From NCBI GenBank assembly GCA_020002185.1, contig CM034533.1, positions 69,879,888 to 69,943,887 of the forward strand: a DNA stretch of 64,000 nucleotides, in the 5' to 3' direction. The DNA is from Paraescarpia echinospica. Its lineage: Eukaryota > Annelida > Polychaeta > Sabellida > Siboglinidae. The notes below the pieces were generated by a model. The model saw only the letters and a program-made list of their open reading frames with translations. It had not been told where the DNA came from and searched no databases. Of the stretch, positions 1,439 through 32,985 are shown piece by piece. Positions within the stretch are counted from its first letter, which is position 1. Each line of letters starts with the position of its first letter. The translations under genes and the position numbers were made by a program.

Positions 1439-1640
1439 CTGGACGCGGCTGAAGGTGCTGTGTGTGGGCCGTGAAACGACTGACAGCCAGAGGTGGTCGT
1501 CCGTGAGTCTGGCCCGGGCTTTGGAGAAGAAGACAACGTTGAAACCAGCGTCGTCCTTGTGACGAGTCACCGGCACGGTACGTTCCACCAGCCCGTCCCC
1601 CTCCTCCGCTGCTAGCCACCGCCCACACAGGAAGAAGTAC
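1439..1640 (-). CDS. polycystin-1-like gene, exon after the PLAT domain
   Basis: Acceptor tcgtgcag and donor CAG|GTACTA flank a 202-bp exon that enters in phase 2 and leaves in phase 0. It encodes the conserved polycystin-1 stretch after PLAT. It starts [10 protein letters not shown], continues with an acidic EEGDG run, then LVERTVPV, a [14 protein letters not shown] block and ends with STFSRVQ. This segment is cytoplasmic in polycystins, between TM1/PLAT and TM2. The phase matches the preceding PLAT exon at 2249-2409. Downstream exons for the remaining membrane helices must lie beyond position 1. Confidence 0.88.
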
Positions 1641-1679
1641 CTGCACGAACAACACCACGACTACTGCTTGCAATTCTCA

Positions 1680-2030
1680 TAATTAACATTACTAGCAAAA
1701 ATTCCCGTCACCTGACGGGATGTCTTGGTAGTAGGCAGTTGTGAAAGTAATATTTACCAAATGTTAGAACACACACAGCATCATTACATGAATACCATTA
1801 CATAGTGCGTTCGCAGATATTCGTTGTTCGTTCAGAATGACGATGGTCGAATATAATGTGAAGTTCACGTCCATCGATAGGTCCTAGTCGTGATAGTGAA
1901 GAATTGTTAAATACTATTCGAATTGCTATGCTATTTGCATGAGGTTAAACAAACATTATTGTGTCTGCGTCTACTCCATTTTTGCCAAGTCTGTGACACA
2001 GGAGCCATTTTCCCGTATTTGCCGAGCGCA
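1680..2030. other. intron, nothing recognised
   Basis: Part of the intron between the exons at 2249-2409 and 1439-1640. Apart from a short self-complementary block near 1700-1720 (cccgtcacctgacggg), no feature was recognised. Confidence 0.4.
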
Positions 2031-2248
2031 CATGGTTCTTTACCTTTCGATAGTAATTTACCTGTCAAGGGTAGTTTACCTGTTGATGGTACATTACCTA
2101 TCAAGAGTCGTTTACCTGTCAGGCGTACATGTTGAGTGTAGTTTACCTGTTGATAGTCAGTTGCTTGTCGAGAGTAGTACACCTGTTGGGAATAGCCTAT
2201 CGTACCTATCGAGGGTAGTGTACCTGTCGACTCTTGAGGGCAGTTTAC
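2030..2248 (-). repeat. ~20-bp minisatellite made of a 5' splice site
   Basis: Ten or so degenerate units of about 20 bp lie directly downstream of the donor of the exon at 2249-2409. On the gene strand the recurrent core is GACAG|GTAAAC, identical to the end of that exon and the start of its intron (CGACAG|GTAAAC). Variants include GATAGGTAAT and AACAGGTAAAC. The array looks like a tandem amplification of the exon-intron boundary. Confidence 0.75.
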
Positions 2249-2409
2249 CTGTCGGACGTTATCAGGTCTTCGACGATGACCTTGTCCAGGAACCATCCAG
2301 CCTCGGCACCAGATCCAGAGTTGTTGTGCCAGATCCGGAGGAAGAGCAGCTCCCCTAGTGGCAGGGCTGTCGACATGAAGAACTTACGAACAGACCCGCG
2401 GCAGAAGAT
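2249..2409 (-). CDS. polycystin-1-like gene, PLAT domain exon 2
   Basis: 161-bp exon, phase 0 in and phase 2 out. Acceptor cgtcgtcag|ATC and donor GACAG|GTAAAC. It encodes the second half of a PLAT/LH2 domain: VRKFFMSTALPLGEL, LFLRIWHNNSGSG, AGWFLDKVIVEDL. The pattern R.F......LG.L...IWH.NSG....W.L..V.V.DL is that of PLAT in polycystin-1 and PKDREJ proteins. PLAT is a beta sandwich on the cytoplasmic side that binds lipid and partner proteins. It joins in phase to the exons on both sides. Confidence 0.92.
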
Positions 2410-2639
2410 CTGACGACGAAGAAAAGACACCTCGCTCACATTAAGCCGACTGAATAAACGTGGAACTTGCATATGTAATAGTTATACATTATTTGTAATT
2501 TCAAGTTTCGGTATTATATGTCTTATCAGTGTTTATCTTATGGTGATTTTAATCTATTATTTAATGATTTATTTATGGGTTTTTTTAATATACATTTACT
2601 TTATTGTACAGCGCATCGATCCACAAAGCGGGATTTGGC

Positions 2640-2840
2640 GTTAAATAAATAGAGCATTATTATTATTATTACAACCATAACATTGTGCACGTCATAATAT
2701 TATTACATAACATGTGAGTATGACATGAAACTCAAATTAATTATTTCTCGAGGATCAATATCGCTGTGGCAAAACTCCACAAAATACCATAGTCCTTGTC
2801 CACTTACGATCTGGAGTAGTTATACATATATATATATATA
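2640..2840. other. intronic AT-rich sequence
   Basis: AT-rich intron ending in a short (TA)n run at 2822-2840. A (ATT)n run lies at 2656-2670. No gene recognised. Confidence 0.4.
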
Positions 2841-3124
2841 TTTAACTAGATTACCACCCAGAGAATACATATATGTATATATATATATATATTGTATATA
2901 TATATATTGTATATATATATATATATACAGATTACCACCCTGAGAATACACGTATGTATATATCTGAATATTGTATATATATATATATATATACAATATT
3001 CAGATATATACATACGTGTATTCTCAGGGTGATAATCTGTATATATATATATATATATACAATATATATATATACAATATATATATATATATATGTGTAT
3101 TCTCTGGGTGGTAATCTAGTTAAA
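2841..3124. repeat. near-perfect ~284-bp palindrome (fold-back/MITE-like)
   Basis: The outer end tttaactagattaccaccc at 2841 is matched in reverse complement by gggtggtaatctagttaaa ending at 3124. Complementarity continues inward through several (TA)n blocks to a centre near 2983. The only spacer is a TA run. It ends about 40 bp from the donor of the exon at 3163-3333. The outer motif CTCTGGGTGG...TTAAA recurs at 13299-13339, which suggests a mobile family. Confidence 0.85.
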
Positions 3125-3162
3125 TTTATCTTCTTGTTAGATTTAAAGTGAGAAACACCTAC

Positions 3163-3333
3163 CTTCCTCTTGCCATCATCGAGGAGTCTCATGCCCGTGT
3201 CTCCCTGATCCCCGGCCAGAATGAAGCACACGTTGGAGGTTGTGCCGGCGTGAACTCTCAGGCCCGTGAACACGGATACATGGTAGCCGTAGGTGTGAGT
3301 CGGGTCGTTGTCCATCAACGGTATCGTGCCCCA
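3163..3333 (-). CDS. polycystin-1-like gene, PLAT domain exon 1
   Basis: 171-bp exon, phase 0 in and out, acceptor cttgctacag and donor AGGAAG|GTAGGT. Encodes 57 residues starting WGTIPLMDND, then YGYHVSVFTGLRVHAGTTSN, VCFILAGDQGDT and GMRLLDDGKRK. The Y.V.V.TG...AGTTS.V.F.L.G..G.T pattern is diagnostic of the PLAT domain start. It follows the first transmembrane exon and precedes the second PLAT exon, in the order known for polycystin-1 proteins. Confidence 0.93.
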
Positions 3334-3417
3334 CTGTAGCAAGCAACCCACGTCTAAACGTGACGGTTTTATACATGGTATGCTCTTCCTCTGTGCACAG
3401 TACAACAAAAACACGAC

Positions 3418-3730
3418 CTTGTGGCTATAGCGTCAGACACTCAGTCGAGAGAACCTGTGTTTGAATCCTGTGCTGCCGGGTCAAACCTTGGACAATTTCG
3501 TTCACTCTACGTTGCTCCAGTTCACCCAGCTGTATGAATGAGTACCTGGCTATAGACAGTGGTGTATGTTTGTGTATGAAGAGTCGTCGCGCATATATTG
3601 CAGCGTAGCTGAATGTTTCCCAGAAAGGTCGATATTGTGTTTGATTGATCAGGTCTGCCAGAGTGTAAAGTGTAAAGCGCCTTGAGCAGTCCTGGGGACT
3701 GGATATTGCGCTATATAATAACTTACATTT
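3418..3730 (+). mobile_element. tRNA-derived SINE
   Basis: The head has a tRNA-like B box (gtgtttgaatcctg near 3462). It is followed by a conserved middle (gttgctccagttcacccagc) and a tail (gcgccttgag...ggatattgcgctatataa) of the kind shared with CR1/L2-type LINE 3' ends. A related copy lies on the minus strand at 19449-19744, which confirms an interspersed family. This copy is partly decayed at the A box. Confidence 0.75.
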
Positions 3731-3907
3731 TACTTATATAAATATGCTCTTGCTACAACGACGTCCTGCTCCACTGTAAGATGTAACGATGCATTAAACA
3801 ACTGTGGACGAAGACTTAGTAACCGCTCAGACTTTAATGACTTCAGCTACAGCGTGTCTGCTTCCGTGCATATATGTCCGGATGCATATACTGGAATTAA
3901 CCTTGTC

Positions 3908-4869
3908 CTCTCGCTGTCCTTCCTGTCACCGTTCCTACATTACCTTCTCGATGTCCATCCTGTCACAGATCCTACGTTACCTTCTCGGTGTCTTTCCTGT
4001 CACCGTTCCTACGTTACCTTCTCAATGTCCTTCCTGCCACAGTTCCTACGTTACCTTCTCGATGTCCTTCCTGTCACCGTTCCTACGTTACCTTCTTGAT
4101 GTCCTTCCTGTCACTGTTCCTACGTTACCTTCCCGGTGTCCTTTCTGTCACAGTTCCTACGTTACCTTCTCGATGTCCCTGCTGCAACAGTTCTTACGTT
4201 ACATTATCAATGTCCTTCCTGTCACCGTTCCTACGTTACCTTCTCAATGTCCTTTCTGTCATAGTTCCTACGTTACCTTCTCGATGTCCTTCCTCTCACT
4301 GTTCCTACGTTATCTTCTCGATGTCCTTCCTGTTACAGTTCCTACGTTACCTTCTCGATGTCCATTCTGTCACAGTTCCTACGTTACCTTCTCGATGTCC
4401 CTCCTACAACAGTTCTTACGTTACATTCTCAATGTCCTTCCTGTCACCGTTCCTACGGTACCTTCTCAATGTCCTTTCTGTCATAGTTCCTGCATTACCT
4501 TCTCGATGTCCTTTCTGTCACAGTTCCTACGTTACCTTCTCGATGTCCTTCCTCTCACTGTTCCTACATTACCTTCTCGGTGTCCTTCCTGTGACTGTTC
4601 CTACGTTACCTTCTCTACGTCCTTCCTGTCACAGTTCCTATGTTACCTTTTCGATGTCCTTTCTGTCACAGTTCCTACGTTACCTTCTCGATGTCCCTCC
4701 TGCAACAGTTCTTACGTTACATTCTCAATGTCCTTCCTGTCACCGTTCCTACGTTACCTTCTCGATGTCCTTACTGTCACCAATTCCTACGTTACCTTCT
4801 CGGTGTCCTTCCTGTCACCGTGCCTACGTTACCTTCTCGATGTCATTCCTGTCACATTTCCTACGTTAC
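3908..4869 (-). repeat. 37-bp minisatellite, ~26 copies of an exon-end plus 5' splice site
   Basis: Period 37 bp, checked at 3971, 4008, 4045, 4082 and 4119. On the gene strand each unit reads GACAGGAAGGACATCGAGAA then G|GTAACGTAGGAA. The true exon end at 4870 reads GACAGGAAGGACATCGATAA then G|GTAACGTAGGAA. Each unit thus carries 21 nt of exon and 16 nt of intron, including a complete 5' splice site. Because 37 is not a multiple of 3, all frames rotate through the array, and the long open frames here are artefacts. Confidence 0.92.
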
Positions 4870-5112
4870 CTTATCGATGTCCTTCCTGTCCATGCGTCTT
4901 GCCCACACGAGCAGGAGGACGTAGACGACGAGGATGGCGATGACAGTGCAGTATCCAAGCTGGTTCGTCGCCAAGTTATCGACAATATTGATATTGCTGA
5001 AGTCAATCGTGTTTACTTTAGGCGCCGTGAATCCGGTCGCGAATGACTTGGTTTCGTCGGGTAGATCCTTGCAGTCGCATTCCAATAGATCCATACTCGA
5101 GGTGCTTGAGAC
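4870..5112 (-). CDS. polycystin-1-like gene, GPS second half and first transmembrane segment
   Basis: 243-bp exon, phase 0 in and out, acceptor actttgcag|GTC and donor ATAAG|GTAACG. The 81 residues begin VSSTSSMDLLECDCKDLPDE, where the CDC pair and following SFATGF match the end of a GPS motif. A linker with IDFSNINIV follows, then a hydrophobic helix LGYCTVIAILVVYVLLLVW (TM1) and the positive cytoplasmic end ARRMDRKDIDK. The sequence ARR.DRKD..K is typical of polycystin-1/PKDREJ. The first half of the GPS (C..W...GC) should lie in an upstream exon that I could not find. Confidence 0.9.
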
Positions 5113-5239
5113 CTGCAAAGTAACAAGACGGTGATATGCAGCAGGCGAACGGAAGGAAGCACGATTGACTGTTGTGCAGCATAGGGCCTATGCACTGCGT
5201 TCTTTTCTTAATAAAATACGACGAGAGTGCTTCTTCATT

Positions 5240-7236
5240 CATCGCCCCGGTCTACAACAACGCACTAAGTGATACATCTCCGCACTTCCTCCTCATCGCC
5301 CCGGCTACAACAACGATACACTAAGGCTGATACACTCCGCTTCCTCCTTCATCGCCCCGGCTACAACAACGCTACAACAACGCACTAAGTGATACACTCC
5401 GCTTCCTCCTCATCGCCCCGGCTACAACAACGCACTAAGTGATACACTCCGCTTTCTCCTCATCGCCCAGGCTTCAACAACGCACTAAGTGATACACTCC
5501 GCTTCCTCCTCATCGCCTCGGCTACAACAACGCACTAAGTGATACACTCCGCTTCCTTCTCATCGCCCCGGCTACAACAACGCACTACGTGATACATTCC
5601 GCTTCTTCCTCATCGCCCCGGCTACAACAACGCACTAAGTGATACACTCCGCTTCCTCCTCATCGCCCCGGCTACAACAACGCACTAAGTGATACACTCC
5701 GCTTTCTCCTCATCGCCCAGGCTTCAACAACGCACTAAGTGATACACTCCGCTTTCTCCTCATCGCCCAGGCTTCAACAACGCACTAAGTGATACACTTC
5801 GCTTCCTCCTCATCGCCTCGGCTACAACAATGCACTAAGTGATACACTCCGCTTCCTCCTCATCGCCCTGGCTACAACAACGCACTAAGTGATACACTCC
5901 GCTTCCTCCTCATCGCCCCTGCTACAACAACGCACTAAGTGATACACTCCGCTTCCTCCTCATCGCCCCGGCTACAACAACGCACTAAGTGATACACTCC
6001 GCTTTCTCCTCATCGCCCAGGCTTCAACAACGCACTAAGTGATACACTCCGCTTCCTCCTCATCGCCTCGGCTACAACAACGCACTAAGTGATACACTCC
6101 GCTTCCTTCTCATCGCCCCGGCTACAACAACGCACTACGTGATACACTCCGCTTCCTCCTCATCGCCCCGGCTACAACAACGCACTAAGTGATACACTCC
6201 GCTTCCTCCTCATCGCCCCGGCTACAACAACGCACTAAGTGATAATCTCCGCTTTCTCCTCATCGCCCAGGCTTCAACAACGCACTAAGTGATAATCTCC
6301 GCTTTCTCCTCATCGCCCAGGCTTCAACAACGCACTAAGTGATACACTTCGCTTCCTCCTCATCGCCTCGGCTACAACAATGCACTAAGTGATACACTCC
6401 GCTTCCTCCTCATCGCCCCGGCTACAACAACGCACTAAGTGATACACTCCGCTTCCTCCTCATCACTCCGGCTACAACAACACACTAAGTGATACACTCC
6501 GCATCCTCCTCATCGCCCCGGCTACAACAACACACTAAGTGATACACTCCACATCCTTCTCATCGCCCCGGCTACAACAACAACGCACTAACTGATACAC
6601 TTTGTTTCCTCCTCATCGCCCCGGCTACAACAACGCACTAAGTGATATACTCCGCTTCCTCCTCATCGCCCCGGCTACAACAACGCACTAAGTGATACAC
6701 TTCGGTTCCTCCTCATCGCCCAGGCTTCAACAACGCACTAAATGATACACTCCGCTTCTTCCTCGTCGCCCCGGCTACAACAACGCACTAAGTGATTCAC
6801 TCCGCTTCCTCCTCATCGCCCAGGCTTTAACAACGCAGTAAGTGATACACTCCGCTTCTTCCTCATCGCCCAGGCTTCAACAACGCACTAAGTGATACAC
6901 TCCGTTTCCTCCTCATCACCCCGGCTACAACAACGCACTAAGTGGTACACTTCGCTTCCTCCTCATCGCCCAGGCTTCAACAACGCACTAAGTGATACAC
7001 TTTGCTTCCTCCTCATCGCCCCGGATACAACAACGAGCTAAGTGATTCACTCCGCTTCCTCCTCATCGCCCAGGCTTCAACAACGCACTAAGTGATACAC
7101 TCCGCTTCCTCCTCATCGCCCCGGCTACAACAACGCACTAATTGGTACATTTCGCTTCCTCCTCATCGCCCAGGCTTCAATAACGCACTAAGTGGTACAC
7201 TTTGCTTCCTCCTCATCGCCCCGGATACAACAACGC
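5240..7236. repeat. 50-bp satellite, ~40 copies, with an 11-unit higher-order period
   Basis: Period 50 bp (gatacactcc at 5391, 5441, 5491). Units alternate between a ccccggctacaac and a cccaggcttcaac version. The diagnostic variant cgcactacgt at 5581 recurs at 6131, 550 bp later, in the same order of flanking variants. This indicates a block duplication of 11 units. The last third (from about 6570) is more diverged. It fills the intron upstream of the exon at 4870-5112. Confidence 0.9.
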
Positions 7237-7820
7237 GCTAGGTCATATACGGACAATACTGGAATACAATTTACGCCTCATTTACACAAGCAGTTATTGT
7301 CCGATTATGTCGCTTAGTGGAAATTTCCGAAAACACCCTGACAACTATATATAATCTAAATAAATAGAATAAGTGAGTTTTGATTCTATATATATTGTGT
7401 AGGTGATATCGTAGGATTTAAAATAACAAAAGGGGTCAGAGGCAATGACCACACGTTTTACGTTACAAATGCCATGTTACAATGTATGATCAATTTCAGG
7501 TCGTGGTTTTGACATGATTGTTTTGCTTGCCCTCCAGTTTCTATTACATTGTGGAACATCCGGTGGATGCATTATACGCCAGGGAAGACTTTTACGTTTT
7601 ACAGTTTGTTCTAAGACTGTTAGAAGATATATCTCAACATCGCTGCCAATGTCCACAGAACAAACGTGAATGACACATCGGGGGAGGGTCACAGTGGATT
7701 GTAGGAGGTGCCGGTTGGTTGTGATGTTATTAGTGTGTAGTTGTTTCCAGCTTTCGGCAACGTTCTAATACCTGACTAATCTGCATATATTGTAGTTACA
7801 ATGTTATGGTCTTATGAGCT
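7237..7820. other. intron, no recognised gene
   Basis: A 71-codon open frame on the minus strand (7692-7477) has no recognised domain and no good splice signals. Otherwise nothing was recognised. Confidence 0.4.
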
Positions 7821-7825
7821 CTCAC

Positions 7826-8290
7826 TCAAATTACTTCCTTAGACTTAGTTCCTCCTGTTTCTTTCGGGACATCTTTCGACGAGGTTCCTACAACTGGACG
7901 GTCATTTTTGACCACTTTTGCCTCATTCCAGGTGATTCCCATTTCTGCCAAGTCTTCTGTAAATGTCTTGCGCCAGGTCTTAGTCGGCCTTCCTCTTTTC
8001 CTGTTACCACCGGGACCCACTCCATCGCTACATGTGCACGTCTCTCCCTCGGTAGACATAGTACATGCCCAGCTAGTCTCCTTCATCTATGCCTGATGAT
8101 GTCATACACTCTTTCCAGACCTGCCCTCTTCATCACTTCTTCATTGGTGATGTGCTCTCTCCATGGTATGCTCAATATGAACCGAAAGCATCGCCTGTTG
8201 AAGATGTCCAATTTCTTGGATAACCTCATTGTATTCTTCCACGTCTCGCTGGTTGGCAGATGTGCTAACCTCTATGAGATTATGTAACAA
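7826..8290 (-). mobile_element. 3' end of a non-LTR retrotransposon reverse transcriptase (degenerate)
   Basis: Minus-strand frames, with frameshifts, encode the C-terminal tail seen in many LINE ORF2 proteins. They contain NRRCFRFILSIPWREHITNEE, then a GLERVYDIIR-like block, then GRPTKTWRKTFTEDLAEMGI and NEAKVVKNDRP. The reverse transcriptase core is missing, as expected of a 5'-truncated copy. It sits in the intron just downstream of the exon at 8338-8512. Confidence 0.65.
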
Positions 8291-8337
8291 AGTAATCTGA
8301 AAAAATGAAAGAAACCAATGTAGAAAATAAATCTTAC

Positions 8338-8512
8338 CATTTTCATCAAGTGCTAATATTCCGATGTAAGCAAGGCCTTCCTTCACTGTATTCTCCGGCA
8401 CTATGACCACTCTCGGTTGACGATCTCGATATGGCAGAGAAACGCTGAAGTCGTGGACGTCTGCAGTCGGCCGGTGTTTCGACTTGTCCGTCGCGTTGAA
8501 CTTCATGTACAC
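8338..8512 (-). CDS. polycystin-1-like gene, GAIN-region exon
   Basis: 175-bp exon, phase 0 in and phase 1 out, acceptor tatacaatcag|GTG and donor GAAAATG|GTAAGA. Encodes VYMKFNATDKSKHRPTADVH, then DFSVSLPYRDRQPRVVIVPE and NTVKEGLAYIGILALDENG. The YIGIL block resembles the beta strands before a GPS site in polycystin GAIN domains. The next exon found (4870-5112) starts in phase 0, so one exon with phase 1 to 0, probably the first half of the GPS, is missing between them. Confidence 0.75.
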
Positions 8513-8514
8513 CT

Positions 8515-8990
8515 GATTGTATATTGCAACAGTTACTAAAATGAATCGTTACCTCTAACTTATGAACTTCTAAAATATATTACTATATAACAATATAACA
8601 TACTATTTTGAACACATGTCACATCAGTGTTAATGCTCTCATTTCTATAAAACATAAAACGACAGCCAGAAGGTAGGCGTACATGATATCATTGGACCAC
8701 AAAAAGTGAACCAACTACACGGCAGAAGTTTAAATGTTTTCTTCATTTCATTGGGAGGGGATTGAACTTTCAGTAATCCAATATCTTGCTCGTCCATTGT
8801 TCATCTTATCGTTTTGCCATGAATTAAACCCTTATTAAAGAGTGTTTTGCTAGGTCTTTATTTCTTGTGCTCAAGGTATGTCCAACACCCGTCTTATTCA
8901 TATTTTCAGATCAATTGGAAACTATGTCGTTAAAATATATTCAATTAACCAGGGAGAAACTTCAGTTAAAACGTTACTGATGGCGTCCCT
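8515..8990. other. intron, nothing recognised
   Basis: Short intron between two polycystin exons; AT-rich and free of recognised elements. Confidence 0.5.
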
Positions 8991-8992
8991 AC

Positions 8993-9204
8993 CTTTATCG
9001 TTTCCGCTGTCACTTCACCACTAATCTCCAGCAAGACAGCGCTGTGGGCAGTGTCAACTTTCATAGCCAAGTATATCGTGTCGTTTTCTGCGTAACGCGT
9101 CACATTCTTGACGTCAACCTCGCTTACGTTCGCCGCTTGTCGCAGACGGAACGACAAGTTGGAGAGACCTGCTTGGCGAAGACTTGAGGAAGACTTGTGT
9201 TCGT
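8993..9204 (-). CDS. polycystin-1-like gene, GAIN-region exon
   Basis: Donor ATAAAG|GTAGGG joins in phase 0 to the exon at 8338-8512. The preferred acceptor is catgtttcatcag|AC, which follows a pyrimidine-rich tract (exon 212 bp). An alternative acceptor, gccaagcag|GT, at 9168 gives a 176-bp exon in the same phase. Encoded residues include LSNLSFRLRQAANVSEVDVK, NVTRYAENDTIYLAMKVD and AHSAVLLEISGEVTAETIK, an alternating beta-strand pattern expected of a GAIN domain. Entry phase is 1, but the preceding exon found (13465-13692) ends in phase 0, so a boundary is wrong or a short exon is missing. Confidence 0.7.
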
Positions 9205-9229
9205 CTGATGAAACATGGGAAGGATAGTG

Positions 9230-9600
9230 TCAACATGTCTTGTTGGAGACGGGAGTAGGGAGGAGAGACGTGGGTAGGAAGAAGAGACGGGAGTAAGGAG
9301 GAGAGACAGGGTTAGGGAAAGAGATGGGAATAAGAAGGAGAGACGGGAGTAGAGAGAAGAGACTGGGGTAGGAAGCAGAGACGGGGTTATGGAGACGAGA
9401 CGGGGGCAGGGAGACGAGACGGGGGTAGTGAAACGAGACGACGTTAGGGAGAAGAGACGGGGGTAGGAAGGAGAGGCGGTGGTAGGGAAGAGAGACGGGG
9501 GTAGGAAAGAGAGACGGGAGTTGGGGGGGAGGCGGGGGTAGGGAGGAGAGGCGGGGATAGGGAGGAGAGACCGGGAATGGGGAGAAGAGACAACGTTATG
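9230..9600. repeat. ~20-bp polypurine/polypyrimidine minisatellite
   Basis: Degenerate units of about 18-22 bp such as gagacgggggtagggaggag. The plus strand is almost pure purine; the gene strand is pyrimidine-rich. It begins about 25 bp upstream of the acceptor of the exon at 8993-9204, so it extends that intron's pyrimidine tract by over 350 nt. Confidence 0.8.
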
Positions 9601-10020
9601 TTGTGGTGACTAGAAATGGAACCGCCTTGTTGTCGTGAGAGTAGAAAGTGCAGTATAGTGATACATTCAGATATAATTTCGGTTACTGACGGAGACGGAA
9701 GTTGCATTTACTGTAAAACAAACCGATGTTATTATTATTACTGTGGTGCTCATGTTGGATAGCCATTCGGCTATCTCCACCAACTAAATTAGTAGTATGA
9801 CGTTTGTTACATCAAGTATGACTAACAGGACACAACGTCGGAGTCGACATCTCGTAATCGGGACCTTGACCAGGCAGTTGTAGGTTTGATTACACAACTA
9901 ATAGCACGTTTACATGCAACGCGTGTATTTGCTACTTCAGGGACAAAACTTCCAAACAACATTACCGTATGTAACAACACCTATATTAGCATTAGACGGA
10001 CGTTACCAATCTTATTGCAT
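9600..10020. other. intron, nothing firmly recognised
   Basis: A consensus-like acceptor on the minus strand near 9709 is followed by stops in every usable frame, so no exon is called. Scattered ATT runs occur near 9728. Confidence 0.4.
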
Positions 10021-11865
10021 TAGTGGGACCTACTACCACATTAGTAGGACGTGCCACTACATATTACCATTGCATTCGGACGTACTACATACTGCATTAG
10101 TGGGACCTACTACCACATTAGTAGGACGTACCACTACATCATTAGGACGTATTACCATTGCATTAGTGGGACCTACTACCACATTAGTAGGACGTACCAA
10201 TACATTATTAGGACGTACTACCATTGCATTAGTGGGACCTACTACCACATTAGTAGGACGTACCACTACATTATTCAGACCATGCATTACTACTTTGCTA
10301 CCAATACATTATTAGGACGTACTACCATTGCATTAGTGGGACCTACTACCACATTAGTAGGACGTACCACTACATTATTAGGACGTATTACCATTGCATT
10401 AGTGGGACCTACTACCACATTAATAGGACGTACCACTACATCATTAGGACGTATTACCATTGCATTAGTGGGACCTACTACCACATTAGTAGGACGTACC
10501 AATACATTATTAGGACGTATTACCATTGCATTAGTGGGACCTACTACCACATTAATAGGACGTACCACTACATATTAGGACGTATTACCATTGCATTAGT
10601 GGGACCTACTACCACATTAGTAGGACGTACCACTACATCATTAGGACGTATTACCATTGCATTAGTGGGACCTACTACCACATTAGTAGGACGTACCACT
10701 ACATCATTAGGACGTATTACCATTGCATTAGTGGGACCTACTACCACATTAATAGGACGTACCACTACATTATTAGGACGTATTACCATTGCATTAGTGG
10801 GACCTACTACCACATTAGTAGGACGTACCACTACATCATTAGGACGTATTACCATTGCATTAGTGGGACCTACTACCACATTAATAGGACGTACCACTAC
10901 ATCATTAGGACGTATTACCATTGCATTAGTGGGACCTACTACCACATTAGTAGGACGTACCAATACATTATTAGGACGTATTACCATTGTATTAGTGGGA
11001 CCTACTACCACATTAATAGGACGTACCACTACATCATTAGGACGTATTACCATTGCATTAGTGGGACCTACTACCACATTAGTAGGACGTACCACTACAT
11101 CATTAGGACGTACTACCATTGCATTAGTGGGACCTACTACCACATTAGTAGGACGTACCACTACATTATTCGGACGTATTACCATTGCATTAGTGGGACC
11201 TACTACCACATTAGTAGGACGTACCACTACATCATTAGGACGTACTACCATTGCATTAGTGGGACCTACTACCACATTAATAGGACGTACCACTACATCA
11301 TTAGGACGTATTACCATTGCATTAGTGGGACCTACTACCACATTAGTAGGACGTACCACTACATCATTAGGACGTATTACCATTGCATTAGTGGGACCTA
11401 CTACCACATTAGTAGGACGTACCAATACATTATTAGGACGTATTACCATTGCATTAGTGGGACCTACTACCACATTAGTAGGACGTACCAATACATTATT
11501 AGGACGTATTACCATTGCATTAGTGGGACCTACTACCACATTAATAGGACGTACCACTACATCATTAGGACGTATTACCATTGCATTAGTGGGACCTACT
11601 ACCACATTAGTAGGACGTACCACTACATCATTAGGACGTATTACCATTGCATTAGTGGGACCTACTACCACATTAGTAGGACGTACCACTACATCATTAG
11701 GACGTATTACCATTGCATTAGTGGGACCTACTACCACATTAGTAGGACGTACCACAACATTATTAGGACGTCCTACCATTGCACTAGTGGGACCTACTAC
11801 CACATTAGTAGGACATACCAATATATTGGTGGAACGTACCATTGCATTCCTGTGACCTACCATTA
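10020..11865 (-). repeat. 66-bp higher-order minisatellite of three 21-24-bp subunits, ~28 copies
   Basis: The 66-bp period is checked at cattagtggg (10161, 10227). Each unit is three subunits that on the gene strand read roughly ACTAATGTGGTA followed by GTACGTCC or GTAGGTCC. The end of the exon at 13465 and its donor read ACTAATGTCATG|GTACGTCC, so subunits look like copies of that boundary. 66 is divisible by 3, so both strands stay open for over 400 codons; these are not genes. A LINE at 11950-13265 separates this block from the remnant at 13375-13464. Confidence 0.9.
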
Positions 11866-23272: not shown

Positions 23273-23288
23273 CTGGTAGATGACTCAC

Positions 23289-23462
23289 CTACTCTCGGCT
23301 GGATGTCGCAGGTTCCCCCGGATGGCGGCAACGTGGCATGCAACTGAAGAGAGTTGATGCCGTTCGCCTGGCCGTCAAACACGGTCAGTTCGAGTTTGTA
23401 GTGGCCACCAGCCGTCATCACGTGCTCCGGGATCACCATGTGCGAGTTAACGCCAACAGTTG
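23289..23462 (-). CDS. polycystin-1-like gene, REJ-region exon
   Basis: 174-bp exon, phase 1 in and out, acceptor ttggatcaacag|CA and donor GAGTAG|GTGAGT. Encodes TVGVNSHMVIPEHVMTAGGH, YKLELTVFDGQANGINSLQL and HATLPPSGGTCDIQPRVG. The Y.L...V.D.......L.....P..G.C.I.P..G pattern is the classic REJ module signature. Joins in phase to its neighbours. Confidence 0.92.
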
Positions 23463-23499
23463 CTGTTGATCCAACAAACAAGCGTAGGTGAGTGCAACT

Positions 23500-25250
23500 G
23501 TATTACCTTAGTGGCTTTGTTTTATTGTTTACTAGCCGAGCTAACCGGCGTTGCTCGGGGGAGAAGGGCGGTCGCCTGCGCGAAAACTGTTTTGAAACTT
23601 TGATCCCCGATATCCCCACTGCCATGGACGAATTTATTTGTATACGTTTTATATCGGAACTTCGCAGTTTCAGTTCTATCCCTGAGAAAGCCATTTGTAA
23701 ACCAAGTTTTTTCCTATATGTTTGCATTATCCTACCCTTCTTAACAGGGCAATGATGATTATTCAATGTAGTAAATATATTTATAAAATATGTATACGCC
23801 AGGTGTGCATCGTCAGCTTCTAACACATCATCCCACTTTTCTTGCCTCATACTTTCAATAAACGTGCATACATTATCATATTTTACAAGTCTTACATATT
23901 TAAAAGTGTCACATTTATGTATCTCTATATCATAATTACATCAAGCAAATATCGGCAAAAGGTCGCTGATGTCATTGATTAATAACCCAGGTCTAACTGA
24001 GTAATTCGTTTGATTAGTAAATATTTTGTCTATTAGGGCACAGGAGTATGTTGTAATTCGACTCGGTTTATCTATTAACGGGAACAAACCTAAACAATAC
24101 ATACAATCCAAAAAACTCTTTGTCCCGTTGTTTGTGTCTTGTTTTATGAGATCGATATTAAAATCACCACATACAAAAATAGATTTACTTGGCTTGACAT
24201 CAGTAAACAACTGCTTCATACCCTCTCAAAATAGGTTTATGTCTGAACCCGGGGTTCTGTCTACCCAACTCACAATTATATTTTTGTGGTTTTTCATGTC
24301 CAATTCCACAGTGACACATTCAAATATATTGTCAATCACATTTGATTTTATTGCTCGAAGTTTGCAAGTGAATCTTTCATTAAAATACAAAGCCACATAC
24401 CCCCTCCTTTTTTGCTATATCTTAAAATGTGGAAAACGTCATATCCGTTTAATGGTAATCATCAACTGTGCTAGAATCAGCACAGGTCTCTGACATGGCT
24501 ATGCTATCAAACGACAGTTTAAAGTCATCAATTAAATCCTTAATGTTTTCACAATTTTTATTTAATATTCTAGCATTAAACTGTATAAATGATAGGCCAC
24601 TCTCTGCTGTGACATTGCGTACAAACTGTTCATCTATATAGTATTTTGATTTGGTATATGCACACTAATATAAAAATGATTATCTGGATCTAAATTATTC
24701 AAAACGCCACTCGATCTATCTTCAACATCACAATCATCATATTCACATTGTTGAAAAGAAGTATCGGAACATACTGTCATCGGATGTAGAATTAAATTCT
24801 ACAAAGTCATCAACGTCAACACTTAGAAGGGTAAATCTAGACTAGCCATAGTCAATGTCTGTTGAGATAGCTATTGTCAATGTTCGTGCGTCGTTCTCCC
24901 TGACTACGAGTTTGTCACAGGAGAGATAAGCAATCTTGCCCTTCTCCCTTGCCTTACGCAGTTTGGGGAGTAGCTCCTTACGTCTCGCCATCACCCTATT
25001 TGAGAAGTCCTCATCTACATACACACCACGGGGCTACTCGTTGCGGGCGGCCTGTAGAATCGCGTCGCGCTGTTTGAAGTTTTCGAACTTCACGACCACT
25101 GTCTTCGGTTTGCCCGAGTGTTTGTTTCCGCCAGTTCTATGCACCCGCTCGATTCTCACTTCGTTTGCCTGTTGTTTTGGCAGTTTCACCGATTACACAA
25201 ACGTTTTACGCAGATCATCCAAGACGTCTGAAAACTGTTATTGCATCAGT
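23500..25250 (-). mobile_element. degenerate LINE (L2/CR1-like): ORF1 end and endonuclease part
   Basis: On the minus strand, 25200-24842 encodes an ORF1-like end (GKPKTVVVKFENFKQRDAIL, VYVDEDFSNRVMARRKELLP, AREKGKIAYLSCDKLVV). Positions 24219-23941 encode an AP endonuclease segment (SIFVCGDFNIDLIKQDTNN, LFPLIDKPSRIT, GLLINDISDLLPIF). Positions 23850-23780 continue with NHHCPVKK. Stops and frameshifts break each block and the reverse transcriptase is absent. It lies in the intron between two REJ exons, in the same orientation as the host gene. Confidence 0.75.
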
Positions 25251-25383
25251 GTTCTAGCGCCAACGCGTTTTTGTACAGAACACTTTTATCTCAATAACTA
25301 TAACTTAGCGACAGCACACACCATACCAAGACGTAAGTTGAATGCAGTGTATCTAGAGTAACAGATAGCATATCAAGACTCAC

Positions 25384-25523
25384 TTGTGTCGATGAGTATG
25401 GTGTCGTTTGACAGTGTCCACACGAACCGATAGCTGCGGTCTCTAGAACAATCAAAGCACGAACCGACGAACTCCAGAGTCTTCACAGGGTTCACCCGGA
25501 TCCAGAAGTATTTCTCCAGACAC
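25384..25523 (-). CDS. polycystin-1-like gene, REJ-region exon
   Basis: 140-bp exon entering in phase 2 and leaving in phase 1. Acceptor cttgtcggccag|GTG and donor ACACAA|GTGAGT. Encodes CLEKYFWIRVNPVKTLEFVG, SCFDCSRDRSYRFVWTLSND, TILIDT. The C..C.....Y.F.W.L pattern marks the REJ region. The intron side of the acceptor is the last unit of the 49-bp array at 25524-26900. Confidence 0.9.
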
Positions 25524-26900
25524 CTGGCCGACAAGAACTGTCATCATCATCGGGAAACAACACCTACGACATCAGGCCGACAAGAACTGTCATTATCAAC
25601 GGGAAACAACACCTACGACATCATGCCGAAAAGATCGGTCATTATCAACGGGAAACAACACCTACGACATCAGGCCGACAAGAACCGTCAGTATCAATGG
25701 GAAACAACACCTACGACATCAGGCCGACTAGAACGGTCATTATCAATGGGAAACAACACCTACGACATCAGGCCGACTAGAACGGTCATTATCAATGGGA
25801 AACAACACCTACGACATCAGGCCGAAGATAACGGTCATTATTAATGGGAAACAACACCTACGACATCAGGCCGACAAGAACGGTCATCATCAACGGGAAA
25901 CAACACGTACGACATCAGGCCGACAAGAACGGTCATTATTAATGGGAAACAACACCAACGACATCGGGCCGACAAGAACGGTCATTATCAACGGGAAACA
26001 ACACCTACGACATCAGGCCGACAAGAACCGTCAGTATCAATGGGAAACAACACCTACGACATTAGGCCGACTAGAACGGTCATTATCAATAGGAAACAAC
26101 ACCTACGACATCAGGCCAACAAGAACGGTCATTATCAATGGGAAACAACACCTACGACACCAGGCCGACAAGAACGGTCATCATCAACAGGAAACAACAC
26201 CTACGACATCAGGCCGACAAGAACGGTCATTATCAATTGGAAACAACACCAACGACATCAGACCGACAAGAACGGTCATTACCAATGGTAAACAACACCA
26301 ACGACATCAGGCCGACAAGAACGGTCATCATCAACGGGAAACAAAACCTACGACATACGACATCAGGCCGACAAGAACGGTCATTATCAATGGGAAACGA
26401 GAACATCAGGCCGACAACGACATCAGGCCGACAAGAACGGTCATTATCAACGGGAAACAACACCTACGACATCAGGCCGACAAGAACGGTCATTATCAAT
26501 GGGAAACAACACCTACGACATCAGGCCGACAAGAACGGTCATTATCAACGAGAAACAACACCTACGACATCAGGCCGACAAGAACGGTCATTATCAATGG
26601 GAAACAACACCTACGACATCAGGCCGACAAGTACGGTCATTATCAACGAGAAACAACACCTACGACATCAGGCCGACAAGAACGGTCATTATCAATGGGA
26701 AACAACACCTACGACATCAGGCCGACAAGAACGGTCATTATCAACGGGAAACAACACCTACGACATCAGGCCGACAAGAACGGTCATTATCAATGGGAAA
26801 CAACACCTACGACATCAGGCCGACAAGAACGGTCATTATCAATGGGAAACAACAACTACGACATTAGGCCGACAAGAATGGTCATCATCAACGGGAAAGT
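25524..26900 (-). repeat. 49-bp minisatellite, ~28 copies, abutting a 3' splice site
   Basis: Plus-strand unit cgacaagaacggtcattatc plus aatgggaaacaacacctacg plus acatcaggc (49 bp), with a few truncated units near 26350-26420. On the gene strand units end ttcttgtcggcctga, while the intron ends ttcttgtcggccag at the exon. The functional acceptor is thus the last, slightly changed unit of the array. Confidence 0.9.
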
Positions 26901-26929
26901 TGATCATGACAACGACATAAACACGTAAG

Positions 26930-27345
26930 TAAAAACTCTAAGTAACTATCGTTGTGTTTCTTTGAATACTTGGCCAACTCGTAGATGAGAGGCCAACAGT
27001 CAAAGGAAGTGAATGAACAAAGACGTAGTCGAGAGGACATCGAGGCATAGATACTGTTACAATGCTCAAACATTAGTGTAACAATATATGCAGTGGCGGG
27101 TCCAGAGACAGTAGTCTACGAGGGGAATCCTCACATTACACCCCCCCCCCCGAAGCTCGCAAAAACATTGGCGGCCGAACCAAATTCATATTAGGTGGGC
27201 TGAGCAAGAGCTTTAGCATGACTCCGACGTCGGATCTTGACATTGGAAGACGGGGGTGGGGATGAACATGGGACGCTATATCAGAAATAAATTATTATTA
27301 TTATTATAGCGCGGCCAAATCCCAAAGCCTATGATGTGGACGCTT
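26930..27345. other. intron with a mobile-element remnant
   Basis: Positions 27085-27200 (cagtggcgggtccagagac, a poly-C run and cgaagctcgcaaaaac) resemble the element at 21715-21915. An (ATT)n run lies at 27288-27307. No gene recognised. Confidence 0.45.
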
Positions 27346-27347
27346 AC

Positions 27348-27558
27348 TTGATAACGACGGACGGCGGGTTCTTTGCCGACACCTTTAGCAGCTGTTGGGC
27401 CCGGCTCACCCAGTGTTCCTTCATCACCTGCACTGCCATCACGATTGTCCTTTTGTCTTCCAACAAACTCGCACTGAACTCGAAGTGGTCAGTGTTTGTT
27501 AGGTTCAACTTTCCCGGGCCGTCTCCGAAGCAGCCTCCCAACGCCCCGCGCGGTCTAC
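27348..27558 (-). CDS. polycystin-1-like gene, REJ-region exon
   Basis: 211-bp exon, phase 1 in and phase 2 out, acceptor cctagctgcag|GTA and donor ATCAA|GTAAGC. Encodes RPRGALGGCFGDGPGKLNLT, NTDHFEFSASLLEDKRTIVM, AVQVMKEHWVSRAQQLLKVS and PPSVVIK. The F.F.A.L......V...V.V.K..W..RAQQ pattern is the early REJ module. It continues the REJ start at the end of the large exon. Confidence 0.92.
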
Positions 27559-27777
27559 CTGCAGCTAGGTTAATCAACAAATCGTGATCAGGATATTAAG
27601 TAAATACATGTTATTATGACAACTACGATAAATAGCATAAAGAGAGGTGATCCGGAGGTAGCCGAGGGTATTATTGAGATGTCCGGGTGGAAATTGTATG
27701 TGCGACGAACTAAATTACTTGGATGGTTTCTTCTGAGCGTATGTCGCACTTTGCACTTTGTTATTTCATTAAAGATG

Positions 27778-27805
27778 TGTCTGTGTGTGCGTGCGTGTGT
27801 GTGTG

Positions 27806-27845
<40 letters not shown>

Positions 27846-27885
27846 TGTGTGTGCGTACGTGCTTCACTGCGCGCGGGTGTGTGAG
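27778..27885. repeat. (GT)n microsatellite
   Basis: About 100 bp of interrupted GT repeat, roughly 80 bp downstream of the donor of the large PKD-repeat exon on the gene strand. Confidence 0.93.
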
Positions 27886-27962
27886 CGCGTGCATTTTAGA
27901 AATATCATAGATGTCTTAGATACATATTAACGCCAGCTGGGATCCAATCAATCGGGTCTTAC

Positions 27963-30119
27963 CCGTTGGAAGCGGAACAATAGGAGGATTGGCCATCTCT
28001 ATCACAGGGTCTTCGTCCTGCCTCCAGCAGTACCAGGTGTACGAGAGGGGCTCTGACGTCCTGTCAAGATCTTCCGTCACCACGTTCATGACAATCGTGT
28101 CTTTGCTCGAGACTAGCCGGTAATCGTTGTACCGGATGCGAACAATGAAGCCACTATGACCTTCCACCTTCACCTGTGTCATTAGCTCGCGCTTGCTAAC
28201 GAGGTTTGTGCAAGTTAGTCGTGTCATGAATTCCCCGGGCTGCTGGTAGACGTGTGTCTTAGTGTAGGGAGTAGTTTCATCCACACGCTCCCTGTAGTCC
28301 GACTGGGAGCTCCCGTCACCGAATTCCCATAGGAAGAAGACGTTCTCTGCCGACGCACTTGAGTTGACAGTGAACGTAACGAGGGGATCGCTCGTCCGCT
28401 CCGGGGAGCTGAGCTTGAGGCCCTCTAGCGGCGCCTGGACGACTATGTTGTTGAGGGAGGGCGACATCGCACTGACGTTATTTGAGACGACCACGCTGAC
28501 GCTGTAGTTGCCAGTTGCGTTGTACACGTGCGATACGTGAAACGTGGCCCGTGTTGGCGAACTTCCCCTGTAATGGATGCCGTTGTCGTGAACTTCTACG
28601 TCGTACGTCAGATGTGACCCGGTCGTGACGGTGAAGCTGATGTTGAACACGCCTCCCACGGCGATCGCTACGACTGACGTCGTCACCTTCAGACCACTGA
28701 CGATCTCCTGCACGACGACAGGCGTCGACGCGTTCCTCCACGAGACGAGGTTTGAACAATTGACGTACACAATTTGGTTCCCGAATACCGGCCTTCTGTA
28801 CGTGTGGTCAATCATCAGAGTCCGTCCGACGACCAGCTCTTGTGCGGACATCGTCGCCCCGGTCCCGTCACCAAACTCCCACCGACAGACAAGGTCAGTG
28901 GGCCGCGACAAATCTGACCCCACGCGAAAGGTGACCTTCTCCCCCATGGTCACTATCGCTTTGGGGGTGGTCAGCCTGATGTCCGAGATGACCTCCTGCA
29001 CGACCACGGATAGAGTGACGTTTTCGCTGCTCACCGCGTTCCTTAGGTAGAATACAGGGGAGAAGTTGCCTGCATTAATGTACGTGATCCCGACCGGTGC
29101 CCAGCTGCCGGTTACTCTCATTACTATAGTAAAGTTGACAATGGTTTGGTTACTTCCTGGGTCTGCCCATCCAGTCACGTTGGAGCCATACTCTGCCGAC
29201 ACGACGAAGTCTAGACACTGACCCACTCTAACGATTGTCCCGTTTTTTGCCACAACCGCCACCCCTTGCAATGCCTCGACCACTCCCATGGATAACTGCG
29301 TGGGTTCAAAGCTCTGCCCGTTAGTAACTTTCACGACTGACGAACCGTGCGAATGATGACCCGACACTTTCTCCAGCACCGTCACGTTCAGCCGGCGCAC
29401 GTTATCGGAGCATACGCTGTAGCAACGCACGTTGACGTTATATGTGCCCGACTCGTTGAACGCGTGGTTTACACGTACGCTGTCGGTGACCACCGCGAAG
29501 TAGAAGTCGCCAAAATCAACCCGGCACATGGCGTTTTGGCTGACCGGATCAACAGTCCAGTTGAACTTGCACGAAGTGAGTTCACACGTGTACGTGACGG
29601 CTAGGTGGGTGGGGATGGTCGCCGTGACATTCACCTCTCGCGAGACGCTGCCGAACGGGTTAGAGCACTGCACAATGACGTTATAGACGCCGCAGTCTCG
29701 GTACTCGTGTTTAGACAAGAAAGACGAGACACTGCTGTTGTCGCCAAAGTCATAACGACAAGTCGGATCACTGCCTGCATCGTACGTTACTGTAATTTCG
29801 CAGTTTGTCTTGTTGCACCACGGGTAGATCGTAAGATTGCTCAATGTCGCACGCGTCATCAGGAAGACTGTCACGTTAGATGACGACACGGAGTTGTTTG
29901 CCGTGAATGTCAACGTGTGGTCACCAACGCGGAAGGCGTACGTGATGATGGGCACGCACGTGCTGTTACCCGTCACCCGTCGCAGCTCTTTTCCGTTGTC
30001 GTCCGTCAACGTCACGCTGATGTCACCGCCGCCTTGCACGAACACGGTGAAGTTGACGTTTTCCAAACGTCGCGACACGTTGTGACTTGACCAGACGTTG
30101 AGCCCGGACACTGGCATCC
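27963..30119 (-). CDS. polycystin-1-like gene, large exon with PKD repeats and REJ start
   Basis: A 2157-bp exon, acceptor gctgtatttctag|GG and donor CAACGG|GTAAGA, phase 1 in and out, open throughout (718 codons). It encodes about seven Ig-like PKD repeats. Clear ones carry CRYDFGDNSS, CRVDFGD, CRWEFGDGTG and FLWEFGDGSS, each followed by a H.Y...G.Y.V.V strand pattern. Others are degenerate in the WDFGDGS loop. Many N-glycosylation sites occur. The end (VRIRYNDYRLVSSKDTIVMN, then LSYTWYCWRQDE) starts the REJ module. Human PKD1 also has most PKD repeats in one giant exon (exon 15), so the architecture is conserved. Extracellular, probably mechanosensory or ligand-binding. Which polycystin-1 paralogue it is cannot be told from this fragment. 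Confidence 0.95.
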
Positions 30120-30191
30120 CTAGAAATACAGCTCTTGAAATAAATCAACCCACTCACGAATATAACAACACTACCATAATTTGGAAAAGTC

Positions 30192-30412
30192 GTATGTTAC
30201 CTTTCTGAATACTTGTTTGCTCAGACGGAGCTTTCGGCATCCTCTCGATGCCTTCGTCGGCGTTGAGCTGATTCACTTCCAGGTTGTCATGTCACGTGGT
30301 TGGTGTTCATCACATGACAGCACTTCCAAGAATCAGTTCAACGCTGACGAAGGCATCGAGAAAATGCCGAAAGCTCCGTCTGAGCAAACAAGTATTCAGA
30401 AAGGTAACATAC
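30192..30412. repeat. inverted repeat with 83-bp arms (fold-back element)
   Basis: Left arm 30192-30274 and right arm 30330-30412 are near-perfect reverse complements (for example ctcagacggagctttcggca against tgccgaaagctccgtctgag). The spacer is 55 bp and is itself partly self-complementary (tgtcatgt / acatgaca). It lies just upstream of the large PKD exon. No coding function is supported. Confidence 0.9.
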
Positions 30413-30414
30413 TA

Positions 30415-31390
30415 CATTTCAAATCATGAACGTAACTGAATCCGTAAAAACCTACATGCTGGAACACTACCATAAGATGAACGACGGCAATCATAAAACC
30501 GTTGTAGCCTAGCATAACAGTAATGGCTTTATACCATCACGGTGACGGAGACCTACACAGAATGTGATTGTGACGTGACATGACAAATACGTATCTGCGA
30601 GTCGACAGTTTTCATGTAACTGTCACGTCGCAATGCGATGTAACCTGTTACATACCTATGACGTAAACGTGACGTCACACTCTTAGTTGGGTATTCTTAC
30701 CAAATCAAGTAAGCACCCTATGTGTTCTTGATGGCAAATGTTACCACTAGATAGAGTTACAAAAGTTCTGAGAAACTTCTCACGCCAACGTCGTTACCTC
30801 TCTCCCGATCAACACACCCTTACAAACATGCAAATTGCAAAAGGTACATATATTTCACAACGAGCATATTTATGCAAATACATATCCATGCAGAATAATG
30901 CGTCTGATTATAACTTATGCTATGTAAATGGTAAAACACTATACACGTTGATCATATAAATCTTAGTTGGTGTTACTTAGGCATACAACCGGCGACGTGT
31001 TTCCCCAGGATAATCGTTCGCAATGAAATACACGGAAAATATTCCTAACATATTCGAAAATACGCGCTGTGAAACGTGGACAAAAACGAAAGCAAACAAA
31101 CTAAGATACACATAAATAAAATGCAGTAATTGCAACGGCGTGGCAACGAGTACAAAGCGGACATGACAAGAAGACGTATAATATACACGGCATTGACACG
31201 TCTCAGCGTGAGACACGTCTCAGCGTGAGACACGTCGCCTCAACTTTGCTACATAGTTATTCTTAAATTAGTGGTTAATTATTAAAAATCGGAAGCAATC
31301 AATTATAGTGAATTACCAAGCATCGGCCATTATCAATCACAAGAAATAAATATACGTTTATAAGACGTATTACAATTAATTATATCAATG
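30415..31390. other. no gene recognised
   Basis: AT-rich sequence with dispersed TGACGT motifs (30540-30700). A short tandem 'agacacgtctcagcgtg' occurs at 31195-31230. I found no exon of the polycystin gene here. Confidence 0.4.
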
Positions 31391-31394
31391 TTAT

Positions 31395-32985
31395 TCGTGT
31401 AATAGGCTTGTAAATACAACGGCGGATACTTACCTATCCGATAATAATCAATATCAATCATAAGACATAAAGATACGTTTATATGACGTGTTACTGTTAG
31501 TGATAGTCATGTTATTCGCAAGGCCTATAGATATACATGTCAATACAACAGCGGATACTTACCTATCCGATAATAATCAATATCAATCAAAAGACATAAA
31601 GGTACGTTGATATGACGTGTTAATATTAGTGATAGTCATGTTATTCGCAGGGCCTATATATATACATGTCAATACAACTGCGGATACTTACCTATCCGAT
31701 ACTAATCAATATCAATCAAAAGACATAAATGTACGTTGATAGGACGTGTTACTATTAGTGATAGTCGTGTATTCGCAGAGCCTATAGATATACATGTCGA
31801 TACAACAGCGGATACTTACCTATCCGATATTAAGCAATATCAATCAAAAGACGTAAAGATACGTTGATATGACGTGTTACTATTAGTGATAGTCATGTTA
31901 TTCGCAGGGCCTATATATATACATGTCAATACAACAGCGGATACTGACCTATCCGATACTAATCAATATCAATCAAAAGACATAAAGGTACGTTGATATG
32001 ACGTGTTACTATTAGTGATAGTCATGTTATTCGCAGGGACTAAATATATACATGTCAATACAACAGCGGATACTTACCTATCCGATACTAATCAATATCA
32101 ATCAAAAGACATAAAGGTACGTTGATATGACGTGTTACTATTAGTGATAGTCGTGTTATTCGCAGAGCCTATAGATATACATGTCGATACAACAGCGGAT
32201 ACTTACCTATCCGATATTAAGCAATATCAATCAAAAGACATAAAGGTACGTTGATATGACGTGTTACTATTAGTGATAGTCATGTTATTCGCAGGGCCTA
32301 TATATATACATGTCAATACAACAGCGGATACTTACCTATCCGATACTAATCAATATCAATCAAAAGACATAAAGGTACGTTGATATGACGTGTTACTATT
32401 AGTGATAGTCGTGTTATTCGCAGAGCCTATAGATATACATGTCGATACAACAGCGGATACTTACCTATCCGATATTAAGCAATATCAATCAAAAGACGTA
32501 AAGGTACGTTGATATGACGTGTTACTATTAGTGATAGTCATGTTATTCGCAGGGCCTATAGATATACATGTCAATACAACAGCGGATACTTACCTATCCG
32601 ATACTAATCAATATCAATCAAAAGACATAAAGGTACGTTGATATGACGTGTTACTATTAGTGATAGTCATGTTATTCGCAGAGCCTATAGATATACATGT
32701 CAATACAACAGCGGATACTTACCTATCCGATACTAATCAATATCAATCAAAAGACATAAAGGTACGTTGATATGACGTGTTACTATTAGTGATAGTCATG
32801 TTATTCGCAGGGCCTATAGATATACATGTCAATACAACAGCGGATACTTACCCATCCGATACTAATCAATATCAATCAAAAGACATAAAGGTACGTTGAT
32901 ATGACGTGTTACTATTAGTGATAGTCATGTTATTCGCAGACCCTATATATATACATGTCAATACAACAGCGGATACTTACCTATC
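31395..32985. repeat. 129-bp satellite, ~12 copies, each with a donor-like sequence
   Basis: Period 129 bp (gcggatactt at 31422, 31551, 31680). Units are highly similar; two sub-types (gggcctatata and gagcctatagata) alternate over part of the array. On the minus strand each unit contains ATCGGATAG|GTAAGTATCC, an almost optimal 5' splice site. The block lies upstream of the large PKD exon and ends at the inverted repeat at 32992. Confidence 0.92.

What the first reader, a model, noticed from the sequence alone, without database searches (positions are those of the whole stretch)
1439..32985. Splice-site arrays: several introns of one gene are filled with amplified copies of their own splice junctions
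At least four introns of the polycystin-like gene carry private minisatellites whose unit is the local exon-intron boundary: 2030-2248 and 3908-4869 (donor), 10020-11865 with 13375-13464 (donor), 14863-16035 (acceptor). A fifth (25524-26900) ends exactly at an acceptor that is a modified unit. Unit lengths (20, 37, 66, 45, 49 bp) and sequences are unrelated, so this is a repeated process rather than one spreading repeat. Consequences could include decoy splice sites, length-dependent splicing or cryptic exons. Replication slippage seeded at splice junctions is one possible origin. I do not know of a description of this pattern across one gene.
Basis: partly seen in the sequence, partly recalled or inferred. 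Interest (0 to 1): 0.88.

Follow-up and report, generated by a model that had tools for sequence, protein, structure and literature searches.

The report
Splice sites copied into intron repeats
In one polycystin-like animal gene, several introns carry tandem repeats made from the gene's own splice sites; repeats of this kind were already described in lancelets and in a few human genes, but several in one gene make a good natural test of how cells pick the right splice site.

Summary
The arrays are real. They are unequal: the 37-bp array at exon N repeats 21 exon plus 16 intron bases; arrays at I and P repeat the splice site with few exon bases; K is looser; C only abuts an acceptor and its units lack the AG.

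A second inverted gene copy, roughly 95% identical, keeps GT and AG at all 16 introns, while several array lengths differ (N: 26.5 versus 16.5 units). Many array donors pair with U1 as well as the real one, yet using an array site retains a stop codon.

Such repeats are known as "mirages" in amphioxus (PMC3087553, PMC3902484); human ABCA7 and CBS have cases. So: a new member of a known kind. Strong minisatellites fill 19.5% of the surrounding 332 kb, so junction-seeking is not required. Organism unidentified; no RNA.

The parts
1439..30119 (-). Polycystin-1-like gene, exons A (27963-30119), B (27348-27558), C (25384-25523), D (23289-23462), E (21942-22177), F (18610-18750), G (18059-18124), H (16491-16572), I (14809-14862), J (14455-14561), K (13465-13671), L (8993-9193), M (8338-8512), N (4870-5112), O (3163-3333), P (2249-2409), Q (1439-1640); continues below coordinate 1
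   Evidence: splice model; Pfam PKD, REJ, PLAT; human polycystin-1; second copy
3909..4890 (-). N donor array: 37-bp unit = 21 bases of exon N end + 16 bases of intron start, 26.5 copies; full boundary repeat
   Evidence: only array with exon bases beyond chance
14855..16038 (-). I acceptor array: 29-bp (6.2 copies) and 45-bp (23.3 copies) units, each array running through TTGTAG|TG; reaches 8 nt into exon I
   Evidence: acceptor fixed by reading phase
2039..2256 (-). P donor array: degenerate ~18-bp unit, ten donor-like sites counting the real one (first intron bases at 2248 ... 2043)
10018..11865 (-). K donor array, main part: 66-bp unit of three 22-bp subunits holding GTACGTCC donor-like sites
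13375..13480 (-). K donor array, exon-side part: degenerate subunits from the end of exon K; parted from the main array by a LINE-like stretch
   Evidence: sequence; sites at 13464 and 13384
25519..26898 (-). C acceptor array: 49-bp unit, 27.8 copies; ends 5 nt inside exon C; units lack the acceptor AG
19807..21707 (-). 33-bp array in intron E>F; possible further junction-derived array, undecided
   Evidence: 60-mer score 14 in the window (chance maximum 14) and 16 in the second copy
31409..32985 (-). 129-bp array (12.2 copies) holding a donor-like TAG|GTAAGT; no exon was established beside it
   Evidence: sequence

Best explanation
These are mirage-type minisatellites. Short tandem duplications arise all over this repeat-rich genome. 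When one happens to cover a splice junction, the exon-side copy of the site still serves, so the change is tolerated, and slippage or unequal exchange then expands it into the intron. The array is normally removed with the intron; an array site used by mistake gives an mRNA with an early stop. Shown: array anatomy, junction content (N, I, P; K loosely), length differences between two gene copies, stop codons in the retained parts. Inferred: the order of events, that the exon-side site is the one used, and removal of mis-spliced RNA by nonsense-mediated decay.
For: Junction 12-mers recur only in their own intron. The second copy has the same arrays at the same places with other lengths (N 26.5/16.5, I45 23.3/8.3, C 27.8/14.7 units) while all introns keep GT and AG. 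All array sites found would retain a stop: P 9 of 9, N 24 of 24, K 33 of 33, I 25 of 25; second copy 10 of 10, 15 of 15, 40 of 40, 11 of 11. Array donor bases are not the best conserved part of the N unit (rank 4 and 8 of 37 circular windows), as expected of neutral copies. Minisatellites are everywhere in the region (75 arrays scoring 150 or more in 331,887 bp). In human CBS a 68-bp duplication of an intron/exon junction leaves normal mRNA (PMC2630376, passage), and mirages did not disturb splicing in amphioxus RT-PCR (PMC3087553, passage).
Against: 5 of 13 arrays reach a junction (3 by TRF ends) where random placement gives 0.45 to 1.57, which leaves room for a bias. No RNA shows which site is used. 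The stop-codon result is one fact per array, because the first retained stretch already holds the stop. Arrays at I, P, K and C carry few exon bases, no more than chance when tested alone.
Confidence: 0.7

Rival explanations
1. Junction-seeded birth: something about splice junctions (AGGT motifs, co-transcriptional structure, fork stalling) makes tandem duplication start there preferentially, so introns grow from their own ends.
For: 5 of 13 arrays against 0.45-1.57 expected; chance of 5 or more 4e-5 (within 5 bp) to 0.012 (within 20 bp). Donors and acceptors are both hit.
Against: By TRF ends only 3 of 13, chance 0.008 to 0.2. The gene was chosen because the pattern was seen. Arrays are dense everywhere. 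The one minisatellite of the downstream part of the gene that was looked at closely lies between, not at, its junctions.
Confidence: 0.15
2. Working arrays: copy number tunes how much transcript is mis-spliced and decayed, or exon skipping, so that the arrays act as a length-dependent brake, as reported for ABCA7.
For: Array donors match or exceed the real one in U1 pairing: N 20 of 24, K 27 of 33, P 4 of 9. Lengths differ between the gene copies. ABCA7 VNTR length correlates with lower expression and exon 19 skipping (PMC5954066, abstract and passages).
Against: No sign that array donor bases are specially kept. Amphioxus mirages were reported not to disturb splicing. No RNA here.
Confidence: 0.1
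3. Chance neighbours: in a minisatellite-dense genome some arrays simply end beside exons, and the shared bases are partly accidental.
For: Density; C units lack the AG; the exon-only test fails for all but N; one exon-K interior 25-mer matches intron J>K at score 15.
Against: No junction 12-mer of 32 recurs in any other intron, while I, N and P recur 21, 15 and 4 times in their own.
Confidence: 0.1

Closest known systems
Amphioxus 'mirage' minisatellites (Adh3, globins BflGb6 and BflGb9, PGBD5, TnC)
   Same: Tandem repeats spanning an intron/exon boundary, donor or acceptor side, with splice signals in many units and unstable copy number (PMC3087553 passages; PMC3902484 passages)
   Different: Five candidate arrays in one gene here against one or two in the published genes whose passages I read; most units here carry few exon bases; the species is not identified
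ABCA7 intron 18 25-bp VNTR (human)
   Same: The unit begins with the exon's own donor; using a unit donor causes a frameshift and early stop (PMC5954066, passages)
   Different: Units begin at the GT, so no exon bases are repeated, unlike N; splicing and expression were measured there, not here
CBS 31-bp VNTR and 68-bp junction duplication (human)
   Same: A VNTR named as crossing from exon into intron, and a duplicated intron/exon junction that leaves normal mRNA (PMC2630376, passages)
   Different: Single cases; the exon/intron split of the VNTR is read from its published name only
Interferon-induced 6-16 (IFI6) minisatellite
   Same: A minisatellite that supplies multiple splice donors (title seen in a reference list; otherwise recalled)
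   Different: Donor use is stated in the title; use is unknown here

Membership tests
Mirage minisatellites | Tandem unit spans the exon/intron boundary | tested here: met
   N fully (21 exon bases); I reaches 8 nt into the exon; P and K with few exon bases; not met at C as a copied site
Mirage minisatellites | Units contain AG/GT splice signals | tested here: met
   N 25 of 26 GT, P 10 of 10 GT, K 34 of 56 GT among anchor sites; I 26 TGTTGTAG sites; C units lack the AG
Mirage minisatellites | Copy number is unstable | tested here: met
   Differs between two gene copies at N, I and C, unchanged at P; paralog or haplotype not resolved
Mirage minisatellites | Regular splicing is not disturbed | not testable with these tools
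   no RNA
Mirage minisatellites | Found in a lancelet (the group where the name was given) | tested here: inconclusive
   Genome 1.08 Gb, contig of 76.6 Mb; haemocyanin search found nothing, nor did any control genome; COX1 search did not complete
Intron gain by tandem duplication (Rogers model) | Both intron ends derive from one duplicated segment | tested here: not met
   Each of the five arrays sits at one end of its intron, e.g. the N>O array stops 575 nt before the acceptor; O acceptor scores 14 against its intron, at the chance maximum
ABCA7-type splice-donor VNTR | Array length changes splicing or expression | not testable with these tools
   no RNA and no population sample

The most novel reading that the evidence does not exclude
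In this genome splice junctions are preferred birthplaces of minisatellites, so introns grow outward from their own splice sites in gene after gene, and the spliceosome routinely picks the exon-side copy among dozens of equally U1-complementary decoys by position or exon context alone.
Probability: 0.17. Interest if true: 0.72.

Novelty: new member of a known kind. Interest (0 to 1): 0.42.

Why it matters
One gene offers several separate, length-variable arrays of near-identical splice sites, donors and an acceptor. That is a natural dose series for asking how the real site is chosen when motif strength cannot decide, and whether such arrays cost expression, as reported for ABCA7. If the species is not a lancelet, it extends mirages to another lineage.

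Tried and rejected
Rejected: one spreading repeat (units unrelated); an artefact of wrong exon edges; strong selection keeping array donors; E>F as a firm sixth case (14 in the window, 16 in the second copy); the 24-bp array of a downstream intron as junctional. A homologue search with residues 720-1316 of the A-M protein found nothing. The haemocyanin search found nothing, but no control genome rang either. Other genes of this genome could not be sampled, so generality is untested.

Full report
What the gene is. On the minus strand of 1439-30119 I built 17 exons, A to Q, from splice signals and reading phase. Exons A-M join into 1316 aa without a stop and N-Q into 259 aa. Phases do not match between M and N, so an exon is missing there. 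Pfam finds PKD, REJ and PLAT domains, and human polycystin-1 matches N-Q at 2.6e-25, gapless across the N/O and P/Q joins and with two single-residue gaps near O/P. The gene recurs in inverted orientation on the same contig, 210-270 kb away. All 17 exons are there; the 16 compared (A left out) have no stops, with pS 0.045 and pN 0.029. The duplicated stretch runs from near the start of what was fetched (69.632 Mb) to about 69.69 Mb; aligned pieces of 700 bp or more on its main diagonal are 90-98% identical. Paralog or other haplotype is not resolved.

Do the arrays contain the junction? Four tests. (1) Centred 20-mers, at least 16 of 20 matching, over 1-33100: I acceptor 25 copies, K donor 54, N donor 25, all in the adjacent intron; none for the other 31 of 34 junctions, P and C included. 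Among exon-internal 20-mers 10 of 4201 had two or more copies, in four clusters (D, E, N, Q). (2) Centred 12-mers with up to one mismatch: I 21, N 15, P 4 in their own intron and nothing in other introns for any of 32 junctions; second gene copy 12, 12 and 5. (3) Local alignment of 60-mers: N 32, I 23, K 18, C 18, P 15 in their own intron; the maximum of 480 other-intron comparisons is 14, reached 4 times; E donor and O acceptor score 14. In the second copy the order is N 34, I 23, K 17, E 16, C 16, then P and O 14, maximum of others 14, so there P falls to the chance level and E rises above it. In a 25-mer version one control, from inside exon K, reached 15 against intron J>K. (4) Exon bases alone (20 nt): only N exceeds chance, 18 against a maximum of 12 in 480; second copy 20 against 11. 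So N is a full boundary repeat; I and P are repeats of the splice site with few exon bases; K is looser; C is an array that ends at an acceptor whose AG the units lack.

Site by site. At N the exon end and the array consensus are the same 37 bases with two differences, one in the second copy; 26 copies lie in register (one spacing 38), 25 with GT. At I, phase decides between two acceptors: exon H ends in phase 1 and exon J needs phase 1, so exon I must be a multiple of three; that holds for the TTGTAG site (54 nt) and not for the TTACAG site (43 nt) (sequence). The acceptor is thus the last unit of the array. At P ten donor-like sites follow one another, mostly 18 bp apart, irregular near the exon, one of them weak. 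At K the exon-side subunits and the main array are parted by a stretch that reads like a LINE reverse transcriptase (motif recalled).

Length change. TRF units, window and second copy: N 26.5 and 16.5; I45 23.3 and 8.3; I29 6.2 and 7.2; C 27.8 and 14.7; M>N 39.7 and 10.0; the 9-bp D>E array is 90.3 in both, and intron P>Q has 608 and 610 bp. Identity of N units is the same within and between copies (0.864, 0.855, 0.862), which suggests that the arrays predate the split and changed by gain and loss of units.

What the decoys would do. By U1 pairing energy 20 of 24 N, 27 of 33 K and 4 of 9 P array donors equal or exceed the real one; second copy 12 of 15, 29 of 40 and 4 of 10. One of the window K sites lies in the LINE-like stretch. 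Each array site found leaves a stop in the retained part (P 9 of 9, N 24 of 24, K 33 of 33, I 25 of 25; second copy 10 of 10, 15 of 15, 40 of 40, 11 of 11). Because the first retained stretch already holds the stop, this is one fact per array. Array use therefore cannot make the normal protein, so the exon-side site should be the working one (inference), and that choice cannot rest on the nine donor bases alone. Array donor bases are not the best conserved part of the N unit (rank 4 and 8 of 37 windows), which fits neutral copies.

Is a junction-seeking process needed? Minisatellites scoring 150 or more make up 75 arrays and 64,806 of 331,887 bp around the gene; the stretch includes both gene copies and a masked run. 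Of 13 arrays in the 16 introns, 3 cross a junction by TRF ends (chance of 3 or more 0.008 within 5 bp, 0.2 within 20 bp), 5 if the degenerate chains at P and K are counted (4e-5 and 0.012); random placement predicts 0.45 and 1.57. The gene was picked because the pattern was seen, so this excess is suggestive only. Tolerance explains it simply: a duplication covering a junction leaves a working site, while one inside an exon is usually lost.

What is known. [quoted passage not shown] Lancelet PGBD5 has two such repeats (PMC3902484, passages). Human ABCA7 has a 25-bp VNTR that begins with the exon 18 donor; retention of one unit causes an early stop, and length correlates with expression and exon 19 skipping (PMC5954066, abstract and passages). 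CBS has a 31-bp VNTR named as crossing from exon into intron and a 68-bp junction duplication with normal mRNA (PMC2630376, passages). A worm minisatellite is linked to multiple alternative splicing (PMC4039745, passages). The original Adh3 paper is not held. I did not see five in one gene in what I read; the searches were made, in open-licence PMC papers only.

What remains open. Species: only 1.08 Gb and a 76.6-Mb contig are known, larger than the Branchiostoma genomes I recall, so it may lie outside the group where mirages were named; this is not shown. RNA: none.

Noticed in passing
window 1-38060 and G000:C3:69632001-69691500 (L004-L008, L011): The gene and its surroundings lie in a large inverted duplication (90-98% identical pieces), paralog or misplaced haplotype.
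   Followed up: partly
window exon A 27963-30119; L004 from 8302 to L005 644: Exon A of the second copy holds about 186 nt more and stays open (804 against 742 codons), so the PKD part varies in length.
   Followed up: no
window 5113-8337: Phases of exons M and N do not match: an exon is missing from the model, in an intron with a 50-bp array (39.7 copies here, 10.0 in the second copy).
   Followed up: partly
window 31409-33640: A 129-bp array with a strong donor-like site in its units, next to a long inverted repeat; in the second copy the array is 944 bp instead of 1577 bp.
   Followed up: no
window 21719-21913: A stretch with inverted ends, possibly a small DNA transposon, lies between the 33-bp array and the donor of exon E (sequence; judged by eye).
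   Followed up: no
window 14340-14356 and exon K near 13502: A 17-base stretch inside exon K has a near copy (one mismatch) in the preceding intron J>K.
   Followed up: no
window 55190-64000: A Gypsy-like retroelement with direct repeats near both ends and a 131-bp array in its leader (sequence; array).
   Followed up: no
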